From positions 1 to 58,264 of the forward strand of contig SVTM01000013.1 in NCBI GenBank assembly GCA_015063785.1: 58,264 bases of DNA. The letters run 5' to 3'. Every line of letters starts with the position of its first letter. The stretch's first letter is position 1. Shown in pieces: positions 1 to 14,158 of the stretch. The position numbers and the translations under genes are program-made. A model generated the notes under the pieces. It was not told the DNA's origin. It searched no databases and saw only the letters and a list, made by a program, of their open reading frames with translations. This DNA is from Oscillospiraceae bacterium (GTDB taxonomy: Bacteria > Bacillota > Clostridia > Oscillospirales > CAG-382).

Positions 1-317
1 TGGCCGTTCAACCTCTCAGTCCGGCTACTGATCGTCGCCTTGGTGGGCCGTTACCCCTCCAACTAGCTAATCAGACGCGAGCCCATCTATCTGCGATAAA
101 TCTTTGACAACCTAAACATGCGATCAGGTTGTGTTATGCGGTATTAGCACACGTTTCCATGTGTTATTCCCCACAGATAGGCAGGTTGCTCACGCGTTAC
201 TCACCCGTCCGCCACTAACTTTCAACAAAAGCAAGCTTCCGTATCAGTTCGTTCGACTTGAATGTGTTATGCACGCCGCCAGCGTTTATCCTGAGCCAGG
301 ATCAAACTCTCTAAAAA
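1..317 (-). rRNA. rrs: 16S ribosomal RNA, 5' end, partial
   Basis: Read on the minus strand, this stretch holds the first 310 or so bases of a bacterial 16S rRNA. The universal 27F site (AGAGTTTGATCCTGGCTCAG) lies at 291-310. It is followed by conserved helices including the GTGAGTAACGCGTGAG block and the GGACTGAGAGGTTGAAC block near position 1. The gene runs off the left edge, so the rest of the 16S gene, the spacer, 23S and 5S should lie outside the window. The sequence is of Clostridia type. I did not assign a genus. The exact mature 5' end near 317 is an estimate from the usual distance to the 27F site. Confidence 0.96.
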
Positions 318-9363: not shown

Positions 9364-9399
9364 AAATTGCATAAAATTCGGTTTTTTTCAAAAAAGCCC

Positions 9400-9428
9400 T
9401 TGACAAATGCAAAAAACAGGTATATAAT
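9400..9428 (+). promoter_or_regulatory. Consensus promoter of the aromatic amino acid operon
   Basis: A perfect -35 box TTGACA (9400-9405), a 17-bp spacer and a perfect -10 box TATAAT (9423-9428). The transcript should start near 9435, about 45 bases before the leader peptide. A promoter this strong fits control by premature termination downstream. Confidence 0.9.
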
Positions 9429-9478
9429 GCAAGCATCAATTTGAAACATTCACCGAAGCGAAAGGAATCAACACCCCT

Positions 9479-9565
9479 ATGCTCACAATGACAAGAAACT
9501 ACTTTTATAGCTTCTTTTTTGGCTTTGCTTTTTACTTTAGCAAGGTCTTTCGTCGTTGTGCTTAA
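9479..9565 (+). CDS. Aromatic leader peptide of the aro/pheA attenuator
   Basis: A 28-codon reading frame starts at ATG 9479 (or the in-frame ATG 9488) and stops at TAA 9563-9565, behind the purine-rich GCGAAAGGA. Eight of its 28 residues are Phe and three are Tyr, most packed into codons 8-20 (NYFYSFFFGFAFYF). The peptide has no plausible function of its own. Its size, aromatic run, position between a strong promoter and a terminator, and the chorismate-to-phenylpyruvate operon downstream match leader peptides such as E. coli PheL. Ribosomes should stall in the Phe/Tyr run when charged tRNA-Phe or tRNA-Tyr is scarce. That this ORF is translated is inferred. Confidence 0.85.
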   Translation: MLTMTRNYFYSFFFGFAFYFSKVFRRCA

Positions 9566-9644
9566 ATTCATAAGGCTTGATTTTTTAAGAGAGTAAAAAC
9601 GATGAAAGACCGTAGCAGATTATCGCCGCGGTCTTATTTTTATT
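9544..9644 (+). promoter_or_regulatory. Transcription attenuator: antiterminator and terminator helices
   Basis: Two exclusive helices can be drawn. The antiterminator pairs GGTCTTTCGTCGTT (9544-9557) with AACGATGAAAGACC (9598-9611), 14 base pairs with one G-U. The terminator pairs AAGACCG (9606-9612) with CGGTCTT (9629-9635) and is followed by ATTTTTATT. Both use 9606-9611, so only one can exist at a time. The 5' arm of the antiterminator lies in the last codons of the leader peptide. A ribosome stalled upstream at Phe/Tyr codons leaves that arm free, while one that reaches the stop codon covers it and lets the terminator form. A T-box motif is not present. Confidence 0.85.
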
Positions 9645-9702
9645 CTCGCACAAAGCAAATGAAAAAAAGAAATTTTTTTATTACCGAAAGGAAGAAAATA
9701 TC

Positions 9703-10710
9703 ATGGTAATCGTATTAAAGAACAACTACGACCAAGTACAGCTCGACAAACTCACCGCATGGATCCGCGAAATGAAGATCGAACCCCATTTCACCCACGG
9801 TGAAAGCCAGACCATCATGGGTCTTGTGGGCGACACCTCCAAGATCGACATCGATATGCTCGGTGCTCTCGACATTGTCGAAAGCATCAAGCGCGTATCC
9901 GAACCCTACAAGCAGGCAAACAGAAAATTCCATCCCGAAGATACAATCATTACTCTTGAAAACGGCGCAAAGATCGGCGGCGGCAACCTTATGGTAATGG
10001 CAGGCCCCTGCTCGATCGAATCGGAAGAACAGCTCACAGAGATCGCCATGGCAGTAAAGAAGAGCGGCGCAAACGTGCTCCGCGGCGGCGCATTCAAGCC
10101 CAGAACTTCTCCCTACGCTTTCCAGGGCATGCGTGAGGACGGACTTGCTCTGCTCATCAAGGTAAAGGAAAAGACAGGTCTTCCCGTCGTCACCGAGATC
10201 ATGGACTACGAACACCTTCCCTACTTCAAGGATGTGGATATCATCCAGGTCGGCGCCCGCAATATGCAGAACTTCGAGCTTTTGAAGCATCTGGGCAGAT
10301 GCGACAAACCCATTCTTCTGAAGCGCGGACTTTCCAACACTCTTGAGGAGCTTCTTATGAGCGCCGAATACATCATGTCCGAGGGCAACGAAAAGGTTAT
10401 CCTTTGCGAGCGCGGCATCCGTACCTTTGAAACCGCCACAAGAAACACCCTTGACATTTCGGCAGTTCCTCTTCTTCATCAGATGACACACCTTCCCGTC
10501 GTTGTCGATCCCAGCCACGCCACAGGCAAAGCGGCACTTGTTCCTTCAATGGCTCTTGCAGGCATCGTTGCAGGTACAGACGGTCTTATCATTGAAGTGC
10601 ACAACAATCCACAGAAGGCTCTCTGCGATGGCGCACAGTCGCTCACCCCTGCCCAGTTCGACGAGCTTGCAGGCAAGATTGCCGGCGTAAAGGCAGTAGC
10701 TTACAGATAA
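9703..10710 (+). CDS. aroF: 3-deoxy-7-phosphoheptulonate (DAHP) synthase, type I-beta
   Basis: The enzyme condenses phosphoenolpyruvate and erythrose 4-phosphate to DAHP, the first step of the shikimate pathway. The 335-residue protein has an N-terminal ferredoxin-like domain (about 1-70). In related enzymes such as that of Thermotoga this domain carries feedback inhibition by Tyr or Phe. The (beta/alpha)8 barrel follows, with VMAGPCSIES, RGGAFKPRTSPYAFQG, GARNMQN, LLKRGL and VDPSHATG. It is the first structural gene behind the attenuator, with AAGGAAG before the ATG. Activity is thus probably controlled both at the enzyme and by transcription attenuation. Confidence 0.96.
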   Translation: MVIVLKNNYDQVQLDKLTAWIREMKIEPHFTHGESQTIMGLVGDTSKIDIDMLGALDIVESIKRVSEPYKQANRKFHPEDTIITLENGAKIGGGNLMVMAGPCSIESEEQLTEIAMAVKKSGANVLRGGAFKPRTSPYAFQGMREDGLALLIKVKEKTGLPVVTEIMDYEHLPYFKDVDIIQVGARNMQNFELLKHLGRCDKPILLKRGLSNTLEELLMSAEYIMSEGNEKVILCERGIRTFETATRNTLDISAVPLLHQMTHLPVVVDPSHATGKAALVPSMALAGIVAGTDGLIIEVHNNPQKALCDGAQSLTPAQFDELAGKIAGVKAVAYR

Positions 10711-11786: not shown

Positions 11787-13082
11787 ATGGAACAGAACAA
11801 TATAACAAAAACTCTTGCCCCGAAAATGACTCTTCGGGGCAATGTGGCTGTAATATCTTCAAAATCAGAGCTTCACAGGCTGATATTTTGCGCCTGTCTT
11901 GCAGACCGTCCCTGCACAATCGCTTTCAATTCCTCCCTGTCAAAGGATATTGAGGCAACCATCTCGTGCTTTCGCGCCTTGGGGGCGCAGATCGAGATCG
12001 GCGACGGCGAGATTTTGATCAAAAAACCGCTTGATTTCGAATATATACAAAACGGTCTTGAAAAAGACTCAGAGATATTCTGCAACGAAAGCGGATCTAC
12101 GGCACGTTTTATTCTGCCGCTCGTTTCGCTTCTGTGCAAAAACGGTGCTGTGCTGACAGGTGCAGGCAAGCTTCCCGAACGTCCTTTTTCTGATCTGTGT
12201 GGCAGTCTTTCTGCCCACGGAGCTATCTTTTCTGGCGATAAAATGCCGATTAAAGTTGTAAGAAACGCAAAACCTTGCGATGGCGCCACCTTTGAGATCA
12301 GCGGAAACATAAGCTCCCAATATCTTTCGGGGCTTCTTTTCATTCTTCCCCTTTGCAAAAACTCCTGCATTCGCCTGACTACGCCTCTTGAATCGGCAGG
12401 ATATGTGGATATGACGATCGACGCCATGAAAAAATTCGGCGTTGACGTGGTAAATAATAACGGAGTATATACGGCAAGAGGAGAATACCGCGTTATCAAT
12501 GACAAAATACGCGCTTTCGGCGACTGGTCAAACGCCGCTTTCTTTCTTTGCGGTGCAACGCAAGAACCTCTTACCGTTTCGGGCATCGATCCGTCATCAC
12601 TTCAGCCCGACAAAAAAATACTTGACCTTCTCACGTCGTGTGGTATAATAATTGAAGAAAAAGCCGATTTGGTAATCGTGAAACGAGGCGAAAAAATTCG
12701 TCCTTTCAGCTTTGATGCAGGCGAAAACCCAGATCTTGTTCCGATCCTTTGCGTGCTTGCGGCATCAATCGCAGGCGACAGCGTTATCTCAAATATCCGC
12801 CGTCTGCGCTTCAAGGAAAGCGACAGAGTGGCAACCGTTATTGATATGATAAGCTCGCTTGGCGGCAAAATTTGCGAGGAGGGAGACTGCATCCGCATCT
12901 GCGGAAGTGGGAAGCTTCTGGGCGGACGCGTAAACAGTCACAACGACCACCGCATTGCCATGTCGGCCGCCATCGCATCAATTTTTTGTGAAAACGATGT
13001 TATCATAGACGGAGCACAGGCTGTGGCAAAATCCTATCCCGACTTTTTCGAAACATTCAAAACTCTTACGGAGGAGACCTGA
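11787..13082 (+). CDS. aroA: 3-phosphoshikimate 1-carboxyvinyltransferase (EPSP synthase)
   Basis: The enzyme transfers the enolpyruvyl group of PEP to shikimate 3-phosphate. The 431-residue protein has two inverse alpha/beta domains. Diagnostic segments are SSKSELHR near the N-terminus (shikimate 3-phosphate and PEP binding), ESGSTARF, RFKESDRVA, and NDHRIAM near the C-terminus. The usual NAGTAMR-type loop reads NESGSTARF here, so the PEP loop is of the divergent class. Start at 11787 follows GACGGAG; an upstream in-frame ATG at 11724 would overlap aroB. The TGA shares one base with the aroC ATG. Confidence 0.94.
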   Translation: MEQNNITKTLAPKMTLRGNVAVISSKSELHRLIFCACLADRPCTIAFNSSLSKDIEATISCFRALGAQIEIGDGEILIKKPLDFEYIQNGLEKDSEIFCNESGSTARFILPLVSLLCKNGAVLTGAGKLPERPFSDLCGSLSAHGAIFSGDKMPIKVVRNAKPCDGATFEISGNISSQYLSGLLFILPLCKNSCIRLTTPLESAGYVDMTIDAMKKFGVDVVNNNGVYTARGEYRVINDKIRAFGDWSNAAFFLCGATQEPLTVSGIDPSSLQPDKKILDLLTSCGIIIEEKADLVIVKRGEKIRPFSFDAGENPDLVPILCVLAASIAGDSVISNIRRLRFKESDRVATVIDMISSLGGKICEEGDCIRICGSGKLLGGRVNSHNDHRIAMSAAIASIFCENDVIIDGAQAVAKSYPDFFETFKTLTEET

Positions 13083-14158
13083 TGAACACTTTCGGAGACA
13101 ACATAAAACTTTGCGTATTCGGGCAGTCGCACGCCGAGTGTATCGGCGTTACCATCGACGGTCTGCCCTCGGGCACAGCTGTTGACGAAGAATACGTGGC
13201 AAATATAATGGCGCTTCGCGCCCCCGGCAACTCTCCCCTTGCCACCAAGCGCAAAGAACCCGACAAAGTTGAATTTTTGTCAGGTGTTGTCGACGGAAAA
13301 ACCGTCGGCACGTCGGTCTGCGCCATAATCCGCAATTCCGACAGCCATTCTTCGGACTATTCGAGCATATTCAAAAAACCCCGTCCCTCCCACGCAGATT
13401 TTCCTGCCTACATACGTTACGGAGAAAACTTTGATCTGCGCGGCGGCGGACAGTTTTCGGGAAGACTTACGGCACCAATCTGCATCGCAGGAGCAATTGC
13501 GCTTTCAAATCTTGAAAAGATGGGAATCTCGGTTTCGTGTCACATAAAATCTGTGGGAGAGGTGCAGGATGTCCCCTTCTCGCCTACCGATGACGAAAAC
13601 GAGCTTGCAAAAAAGCTCAACTGCATGGCTTTTCCCGTTATTGACGAAAAAGCAGGCGACAAAATGGTTGAGACGATCGTAAAAGCTTCGGCAGAGCTTG
13701 ATTCTGTCGGCGGTGTTATCGAATGCAAGATAACGGGACTTCCTGTTGGTGTCGGCGAGCCGATGTTTGGCGGCATCGAAAACGTAATATCGCGCATGAT
13801 GTTTGGAATCCCTGCCGTCAAGGGCATCGAATTTGGTGCAGGCTTTGAGGGAAGCAAAATGCGTGGCTCGCAGTTTAACGACAGTTATTATTACGACAAG
13901 GACGTCAACGTCCGAACAAAGACCAACAATGCAGGCGGCATCTGCGGAGGCATGGCAACGGGTATGCCCGTTATCTTCCGTGTTGCCATAAAACCCACTC
14001 CGTCTATTGCAAAAGCACAGGAAACGGTTGATCTTGCCACCGGCAAAAACACCGTCATCGAGATCAAAGGCAGACACGATCCCTGCATTGCATCGCGCGC
14101 TTCGGTGGTTGTTCGCGCTGCCGCCGCTTTTGCGATATTTGATCTTTTGCAAAGCTGA
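13082..14158 (+). CDS. aroC: Chorismate synthase
   Basis: This 358-residue, FMN-dependent enzyme removes phosphate from EPSP to form chorismate. Family signatures are visible: FGQSHAECIGVTIDGLP at the N-terminus, RPSHADFPAYIRYG, RGGGQFSGRLTAP, and the NNAGGICGGMATGMP region. It overlaps aroA by one base, so translation is coupled. The next gene, pheA, starts 26 bp downstream and uses its product. Confidence 0.96.
   Translation: MNTFGDNIKLCVFGQSHAECIGVTIDGLPSGTAVDEEYVANIMALRAPGNSPLATKRKEPDKVEFLSGVVDGKTVGTSVCAIIRNSDSHSSDYSSIFKKPRPSHADFPAYIRYGENFDLRGGGQFSGRLTAPICIAGAIALSNLEKMGISVSCHIKSVGEVQDVPFSPTDDENELAKKLNCMAFPVIDEKAGDKMVETIVKASAELDSVGGVIECKITGLPVGVGEPMFGGIENVISRMMFGIPAVKGIEFGAGFEGSKMRGSQFNDSYYYDKDVNVRTKTNNAGGICGGMATGMPVIFRVAIKPTPSIAKAQETVDLATGKNTVIEIKGRHDPCIASRASVVVRAAAAFAIFDLLQS

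What the first reader, a model, noticed from the sequence alone, without database searches (positions are those of the whole stretch)
9479..9565. Phe/Tyr-rich leader peptide ahead of the shikimate/phenylalanine operon
A 28-codon ORF between a perfect promoter and a terminator contains 8 Phe and 3 Tyr codons (11 of 28), with no Trp, and precedes aroF-aroB-aroA-aroC-pheA. Enterobacterial pheA uses such leader peptides, while Bacillota usually use T-boxes or TRAP for aromatic genes. The Phe excess matches the end product of the last gene, and Tyr could report on the common branch.
Basis: partly seen in the sequence, partly recalled or inferred. Interest (0 to 1): 0.85.

Follow-up and report, generated by a model that had tools for sequence, protein, structure and literature searches.

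The report
Phe/Tyr codon-swapped attenuators in Clostridia
Ahead of its phenylalanine-making genes this uncultured clostridial bacterium has a 28-codon reading frame with eight phenylalanine codons, predicted to switch the genes on when a ribosome would stall there for lack of phenylalanine, and ahead of its tyrosine gene it has a matching element in which most of those codons are tyrosine codons.

Summary
ORF 9479-9565 (8 Phe, 3 Tyr, no Trp) lies between a perfect promoter and a terminator, ahead of aroF-aroB-aroA-aroC-pheA. The predicted attenuator is complete: 1:2 hairpin, 14-bp 2:3 antiterminator, 3:4 terminator. Across five aroF and three tyrA leaders the antiterminator is 98% paired, with compensatory changes. 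In a folding model, termination drops clearly only with the ribosome on codons 12-18, five of them Phe.

Phe/Tyr-rich leaders precede 105 of 163 aroF loci surveyed in the order (reverse strand 4 of 163), in 19 of 21 families. Their Tyr share follows operon content: 0.80 for aroF-tyrA, 0.45 with tyrA plus other aro genes, 0.26 without tyrA (phylogenetic regression, tyrA present versus absent, p = 1e-5), with exceptions.

The same genome has a separate tyrA behind a matching element with Tyr in place of most Phe codons. pheS has a T-box; tyrS a match below cut-off.

This is a new, widespread member of a known kind, ribosome-mediated attenuation, where T-boxes are expected. Closest in print: uORFC-13-1 before Acholeplasma aroF. 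The order-wide antiterminator signal is moderate; there are no expression data.

The parts
9400..9428 (+). promoter TTGACA-17-TATAAT
   Evidence: 12 of 12 consensus match; TTGACA and TATAAT also present in the G003, G001 and G004 rows of alignment A1
9460..9466 (+). putative ribosome binding site of the leader ORF (GAAAGGA)
   Evidence: read from sequence; 12 nt before ATG
9479..9565 (+). leader peptide ORF, 28 codons, 8 Phe, 3 Tyr (an internal ATG at codon 4 is a possible alternative start)
   Evidence: similar ORFs upstream of aroF in relatives
9512..9532 (+). predicted control codons (codons 12-18: F F F G F A F)
   Evidence: P(terminator) 0.08-0.50 with the ribosome here, 0.86 at codons 8-10 and 0.91 or more from codon 21 to stop
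9521..9529 (+). segment 1 (GGCUUUGCU), 5' arm of the 1:2 pause hairpin
   Evidence: pairs with 9539-9547; 98.5% of cells paired over 8 sequences, nearly invariant
9539..9547 (+). 3' arm of the 1:2 hairpin (AGCAAGGUC)
9544..9557 (+). segment 2 (GGUCUUUCGUCGUU), antiterminator 5' arm, inside the ORF
   Evidence: 14 bp with 9598-9611; 98.2% paired over 8 sequences, two pairs with changes on both sides; duplex -23.5 kcal/mol against -10.1 +- 2.5 for shuffles
9598..9611 (+). segment 3 (AACGAUGAAAGACC), antiterminator 3' arm
9606..9635 (+). intrinsic terminator hairpin 3:4
9636..9647 (+). U-rich tract, which can also pair with 9589-9599
9686..9694 (+). putative ribosome binding site of aroF
   Evidence: read from sequence
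9703..10710 (+). aroF, DAHP synthase
   Evidence: NCBIfam NF006421, 484.9 bits
10733..11776 (+). aroB
   Evidence: TIGR01357, 364.7 bits
11787..13082 (+). aroA (start codon read by eye)
   Evidence: TIGR01356, 293.1 bits (scanned from 11793)
13082..14158 (+). aroC
   Evidence: NF003793, 377.3 bits
14185..15336 (+). pheA, chorismate mutase / prephenate dehydratase
   Evidence: TIGR01805 72 bits (cut-off 71.2); NF008865 185.9 bits (below cut-off 219)

Best explanation
The ORF at 9479-9565 is likely the leader peptide of a ribosome-mediated transcription attenuator: when charged tRNA-Phe is scarce a ribosome would stall on the Phe codons among codons 12-18, which is predicted to open the 1:2 hairpin, let segment 2 pair with segment 3, and so allow read-through into aroF-aroB-aroA-aroC-pheA. 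When Phe is plentiful the ribosome would run to the stop codon, cover segment 2 and leave the 3:4 terminator free to form. With the ribosome absent or stalled before codon 11, the 1:2 hairpin is predicted to favour termination. A matching element with Tyr codons in place of most Phe codons precedes the genome's separate tyrA and would read Tyr in the same way. Shown by sequence: the ORF, the three complementary pairings, their conservation and the compensatory changes, the tyrA element, and the match between leader codons and operon content in relatives. Inferred: translation, stalling, termination, read-through, and the amino acid sensed.
For: Antiterminator duplex in all five aroF leaders of the group (L001-L005) is -23.5 to -25.5 kcal/mol and beats 100 of 100 shuffles each. 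The 14-bp helix is 98.2% paired in 8 sequences; C-G becomes U-A in 4 of 8 and, at another pair, 2 of 8; slid controls pair 37-64%. In the switch model P(terminator) is 0.08-0.50 at codons 12-18 and 0.92 at stop; six related leaders (four aroF, two tyrA) dip in the same stretch; for the two elements of this genome the dip persists with ribosome edges of 9, 12 and 15 nt. Leaders with at least 7 Phe/Tyr in 16 residues precede 82 of 107 aroF loci (reverse strand 2 of 107, shuffles 24 of 1070), and 105 of 163 in the order survey (reverse strand 4 of 163). Single substitutions in aromatic codons (23 leader pairs) are 14 synonymous, 8 Phe-Tyr and 8 to other residues, where 71-73% to other residues is expected (p = 2e-7 to 9e-7). 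Tyr share tracks operon content. The own tyrA element keeps the pairings and terminator, with Tyr at codons 11-13 and 17-19.
Against: No expression or ribosome-profiling data. 58 of 163 loci fall below the leader threshold, 8 of 22 in the window's own family. Order-wide the antiterminator is not always visible: the best duplex ranks in the top 5% of shuffles in 18 of 80 loci, the equilibrium switch exceeds 0.3 in 29 of 160 (shuffled 12 of 320), and the co-transcriptional measure exceeds 0.5 in 51 of 160 (shuffled 70 of 480). The dip is shallow in G003 (minimum 0.39) and in the own tyrA element (0.44). The ORF as a whole shows no third-position excess (126/144/158 substitutions), as expected for a leader but no support for coding. 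Operon rule exceptions: G139 and G189 have Tyr share 0.60 and G221 0.55 without tyrA; G058 and G149 have 0.14 with tyrA. Six of 11 tyrA genes not next to aroF have no leader. The 1:2 helix hardly varies.
Confidence: 0.82

Rival explanations
1. The same attenuator, but this copy senses Phe and Tyr about equally, with Tyr codons 8, 10 and 19 taking part.
For: 3 of the 11 aromatic codons are Tyr; G022, the genome of another genus with the most similar aroF (82%), has tyrA straight after aroF and a leader with 7 Phe and 5 Tyr, so mixed sensing may be ancestral.
Against: The model gives P(terminator) 0.86 at Tyr 8 and Tyr 10 and 0.35-0.87 at Tyr 19 depending on ribosome edge; tyrA has its own Tyr element here; G003 has Phe instead of Tyr at codon 8.
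Confidence: 0.12
2. The reading frame is not translated; the T-rich stretch is a by-product of an RNA switch whose terminator is set by a protein or a small molecule.
For: No third-position excess across the ORF; segment 2 and the 1:2 hairpin lie inside the T-rich stretch.
Against: Aromatic codons change synonymously or between Phe and Tyr far more than neutral expectation; the Phe/Tyr ratio follows operon content after correction for phylogeny; no Rfam family reaches its cut-off in 9380-9720.
Confidence: 0.04
3. The peptide is an arrest peptide: the nascent chain in the tunnel stalls the ribosome on sensing free Phe or Tyr, as TnaC does for Trp.
For: A conserved C-terminal stretch SKVF/GKVF followed by RRC, CRC or CCC is seen in the aroF and tyrA leaders.
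Against: That stretch is the RNA segment that pairs in helices 1:2 and 2:3, and its residues change (Arg to Cys) while pairing is kept by compensatory changes; stalling at the C-terminus would cover segment 2 and give termination in the model.
Confidence: 0.02

Closest known systems
uORFC-13-1 motif upstream of aroF in Acholeplasma (PMC8632094; section 26 read)
   Same: uORF with Phe codon(s), promoter, start codon, terminator, ahead of the DAHP synthase gene; attenuation proposed there
   Different: 24 representatives in Acholeplasma and environmental sequences, a run of U coding for at least one Phe; the section mentions no Tyr codons and no operon-content rule; its consensus figure is not held, so the two were not aligned
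pheL-pheA attenuator of Enterobacteria, Rfam RF01859 Phe_leader (mechanism recalled)
   Same: Phe-rich leader ORF and mutually exclusive terminator/antiterminator ahead of pheA
   Different: Only 15.5 bits against a gathering score of 55 here; here the whole aro operon follows
Leader peptides in other Bacillota: His leader of hisS paralogues in bacilli (PMC2965389, passages); Leu-rich leader of ilv-leu in Staphylococcus aureus (PMC5794164, passages)
   Same: Leader-peptide attenuation where a T-box would be expected
   Different: Other amino acids and genes
T-box riboswitch RF00230
   Same: Found at other genes of this genome (pheS over cut-off; tyrS match below cut-off) and, instead of a leader peptide, at aroF in G048 and at the second aroF copy of G038
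   Different: No T-box at the window operon; a T-box reads a tRNA through its structure, not by translation (recalled)

Membership tests
ribosome-mediated leader-peptide attenuators | short ORF rich in codons of the operon's product | tested here: met
   8 Phe and 3 Tyr in 28 codons
ribosome-mediated leader-peptide attenuators | mutually exclusive antiterminator and terminator, antiterminator arm inside or just after the ORF | tested here: met
   (predicted structures with covariation)
ribosome-mediated leader-peptide attenuators | intrinsic terminator before the first structural gene | tested here: met
   (predicted)
ribosome-mediated leader-peptide attenuators | read-through depends on ribosome stalling at the control codons | not testable with these tools
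   needs reporter or ribosome profiling
Rfam RF01859 Phe_leader | covariance-model score at or above gathering | tested here: not met
   15.5 bits against 55
T-box RF00230 | covariance-model score at or above gathering in the leader | tested here: not met
   no match in the window at gathering nor in 9380-9720 up to E 10
uORFC-13-1 | uORF with Phe codons, terminator, located upstream of aroF | tested here: met
   definition from PMC8632094 section 26
uORFC-13-1 | match to its consensus sequence and structure | not tested
   the consensus is in a figure not held here; no Rfam family of that name came up

The most novel reading that the evidence does not exclude
Oscillospirales-type Clostridia share one codon-programmable attenuator for aromatic amino-acid genes: the RNA switch is kept while its Phe/Tyr codon mix is retuned whenever genes join or leave the operon. 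In the window's genus, the separation of tyrA from the operon went with two matching, codon-swapped elements, one Phe-biased on aroF-pheA and one Tyr on tyrA. The leader's codon mix can then be read as a genomic record of which end product controls the operon.
Probability: 0.7. Interest if true: 0.7.

Novelty: new member of a known kind. Interest (0 to 1): 0.6.

Why it matters
Here a likely leader-peptide attenuator appears at the entry to the shikimate pathway in 19 of 21 sampled families of one order, and the window's genome also has T-box matches at pheS and tyrS. Because leader codons follow operon content, the family is a natural series of codon-swap experiments on attenuation, and offers a way to predict end-product control in uncultured bacteria from sequence.

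Tried and rejected
Chance T-rich ORF: rejected by shuffles, reverse-strand control and substitution pattern. T-box at this operon: rejected. T-box sequence motifs seen by regular expression in L020, L026 and L220 were not confirmed by Infernal; L026 had been left out because of that false flag. Rfam Phe_leader: rejected. Order-wide antiterminator by best duplex against shuffles: 18 of 80 loci ranked in the top 5% and 9 beat all shuffles, so no universal helix was found by that route. Equilibrium switch model order-wide: weak. Third-position excess test: negative. His_leader on the minus strand (E 0.049, half its cut-off) judged chance. Literature: in ten searches of an open-licence PMC library I saw no report of Phe/Tyr leaders at aroF or tyrA in Clostridia; I saw only listings and abstract beginnings, several lists were capped (for example 20 of 224), and subscription papers are mostly not covered. 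Papers: passages seen of PMC2965389, PMC5794164, PMC1262725 and PMC8632094, and of the last also section 26 whole.

Full report
WHAT IS THERE. The ORF 9479-9565 encodes MLTMTRNYFYSFFFGFAFYFSKVFRRCA (8 Phe, 3 Tyr, no Trp) and starts 51 nt past the end of a perfect sigma-70 promoter. A terminator hairpin at 9606-9635 follows, then aroF-aroB-aroA-aroC-pheA.

ANATOMY. Three helices compete (coordinates). Segment 1, GGCUUUGCU 9521-9529 (codons 15-17), pairs with AGCAAGGUC 9539-9547 (codons 21-23). Segment 2, GGUCUUUCGUCGUU 9544-9557, pairs over 14 bp with segment 3, AACGAUGAAAGACC 9598-9611. Segment 3 overlaps the 5' arm of the terminator. The 2:3 duplex is -23.5 kcal/mol against -10.1 +- 2.5 for shuffles; in all five aroF leaders of the group (L001-L005) it beats 100 of 100 shuffles. 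Over eight sequences (aroF of G000, G003, G001, G004, G022; tyrA of G000, G004, G034) 98.2% of cells pair. C-G becomes U-A in 4 of 8 sequences at one pair and 2 of 8 at another, and slid controls pair 37-64%. These sequences are related, so the shuffle control (0 of 500 for the covariation score) is supportive, not a probability; by number of pairs with changes on both sides, 189 of 500 shuffles do as well. The 1:2 helix is 98.5% paired but nearly invariant.

SWITCH MODEL. I folded what lies downstream of a ribosome at each codon. For the window leader P(terminator) is 0.86 at codons 7-11. It is 0.50, 0.33, 0.21, 0.19, 0.08, 0.08 and 0.35 at codons 12-18, 0.72 at 19, and 0.87 or more from 20 to the stop. 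Edges of 9 or 15 nt shift this by one codon. The sensitive aromatic codons are therefore Phe 12, 13, 14, 16 and 18; Tyr 8 and Tyr 10 lie before and Tyr 19 at the edge. Four aroF relatives dip in the same stretch, to minima of 0.39 (G003), 0.02 (G001), 0.36 (G004) and 0.02 (G022), against 0.79-0.97 at stop. This is an equilibrium model, not an experiment.

CONSERVATION. All four genomes of the genus with an aroF match (G000, G001, G003, G004) have the leader; G002 has no aroF match. Of 107 aroF loci (L001-L110 without L030, a distant hit, and L031 and L032, repeats of L002 and L004), 82 have an ORF with at least 7 Phe/Tyr in 16 residues within 330 nt, against 2 of 107 on the reverse strand and 24 of 1070 shuffles. 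In an order survey of 163 loci that I oriented (from the hits, not all of which were listed or fetched), 105 pass within 400 nt against 4 of 163 on the reverse strand. They lie in 19 of 21 families, f2 only with two loci at the threshold; f6 (0 of 2 loci) and f15 (0 of 1) had none. In the window's own family 14 of 22 loci pass. Nearest named record: L031, 99% identical AroF, a Clostridia MAG from water-buffalo colon. An identical leader peptide in named L078 (uncultured Oscillospiraceae) and unnamed G167 suggests that the order is Oscillospirales (inference). In aromatic codon columns with one substitution (23 leader pairs), 14 are synonymous, 8 Phe-Tyr and 8 lose the aromatic; chance expects 71-73% losses (p = 2e-7 to 9e-7). 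The peptide as a whole is not under visible coding constraint.

CODONS FOLLOW THE OPERON. For 129 leader-bearing loci with callable gene content (134 assembled with a leader score of at least 6 or 7, 4 not callable or too short, 1 duplicate) the Tyr share of Phe+Tyr codons averages 0.80 in aroF-tyrA units (n = 6), 0.45 where tyrA and other aro genes follow (n = 95), and 0.26 without tyrA (n = 28). tyrA present versus absent gives p = 2.6e-9 by Mann-Whitney. By phylogenetic regression p = 1.0e-5 (n = 123), and 1.0e-6 when thinned below 85% AroF identity (n = 88). The six aroF-tyrA units were fetched because their leaders were Tyr-rich; all 6 of 6 then proved to have tyrA next and no other aro gene in the DNA fetched. 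The tests just named leave these six out, but keep, in the no-tyrA group, the five second aroF copies of the same genomes, which were fetched for comparison. Those five (G008, G020, G028, G244, G278) have Phe-richer leaders and head aroB-aroA; pheA was seen in 4 of the 5, the fifth contig piece ending early. L275 (G040) was fetched but not tabulated. Exceptions: G139, G189, G221 (Tyr-rich without tyrA), G058, G149 (Tyr-poor with tyrA).

CODON SWAP WITHIN ONE GENOME. The window's genome has tyrA elsewhere (G000:C27; Pfam PDH_N over its cut-off; best NCBIfam matches are prephenate dehydrogenases, below their cut-offs), behind its own promoter, leader ORF MSATKNIYGTYYYGFAYYYGKVFCCCSLCDGI and terminator. 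In a gapless alignment by eye to the aroF leader, Phe 12, 13, 14, 18 and 20 (and Phe 9) face Tyr, while Phe 16 and Phe 24, which lie in the RNA helices, stay Phe. Its predicted sensitive stretch is codons 11-17, with Tyr 11-13 and 17 and one Phe, 15 (P 0.44-0.59; 0.96 at stop). G004 has the same pair of elements. Of 30 tyrA loci scanned, 0 of 19 directly behind aroF has a leader of its own that reaches the threshold. Of the 11 elsewhere, 4 do (G000, G004, G019, G027), G034 scores 6 with a matching element, and 6 have none (G002, G013, G023, G038, G048, G056). In G022, the genome of another genus with the most similar aroF (82%), tyrA follows aroF directly and one leader carries 7 Phe and 5 Tyr. 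The simplest reading is that tyrA left the operon with a copy of the switch and the two copies specialised (inference).

T-BOXES. The genome has nine T-box matches, three over the cut-off. pheS has one over the cut-off; tyrS (71.9 bits) and trpB (67.5 bits) have ones below the gathering score of 93 (genes). At aroF, T-boxes over the cut-off stand in place of the leader in G048 and at the second aroF copy of G038, with UUC at the aligned specifier position (read by eye).

KNOWN OR NEW. Closest in print among what I saw is uORFC-13-1 before Acholeplasma aroF (PMC8632094). Leader peptides in other Bacillota are reported for His and Leu (PMC2965389, PMC5794164). Rfam Phe_leader does not match (15.5 against 55 bits). 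I file this as a new member of a known kind, ribosome-mediated attenuation, with an unusually wide distribution and a codon-content rule that I did not see in the listings of my ten searches.

Noticed in passing
L356 (G003:C17, around 9479-9497, minus strand): In G003 the Tyr leader and the start of its terminator are followed at once by what looks like the last codons of tyrA: the gene seems deleted while its leader remains (G003 is an 80% complete MAG with 6% contamination; no tyrA match).
   Followed up: partly
L029 (G048) and L263 (G038): aroF here is preceded by a T-box with UUC at the aligned specifier position instead of a leader peptide: two kinds of sensor at the same gene in one order.
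   Followed up: partly
L234, L235, L236, L238, L246 (f14) and L020, L193, L201, L220 (f23): Leaders that also contain one or two Trp codons and a recurring pattern such as RFTSFGYPRFFWAW or FSYGWARFMG; Trp may be sensed too, or other residues matter.
   Followed up: no
L054, L060, L080, L103, L035: Leaders also occur in contigs labelled Christensenellaceae, Treponemataceae, Lachnospiraceae, Bacteroidaceae and Bacteroidales; the 7 other loci labelled Bacteroidaceae lack one, so some labels may be wrong or the element may have moved.
   Followed up: no
G221:C21:23480-25809: Two aroF copies in tandem, with the leader before the first; the roughly 370 nt between them were not examined.
   Followed up: no
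L124 (G000:C45:52093-52330): A T-box-like match (86.1 bits, below the cut-off) precedes a protein that begins like a helix-turn-helix/cupin regulator and continues like an AMP-binding enzyme (read by eye).
   Followed up: no
loci scoring 6, such as L234-L236, L238 (f14), L193, L201 (f23): 20 of 163 loci score just below the leader threshold (10 of 163 on the reverse strand); several in f14 and f23 have conserved ORFs at the usual place, so 105 of 163 is probably an undercount.
   Followed up: partly
window 1-317, minus strand: The window begins inside a 16S rRNA gene.
   Followed up: no
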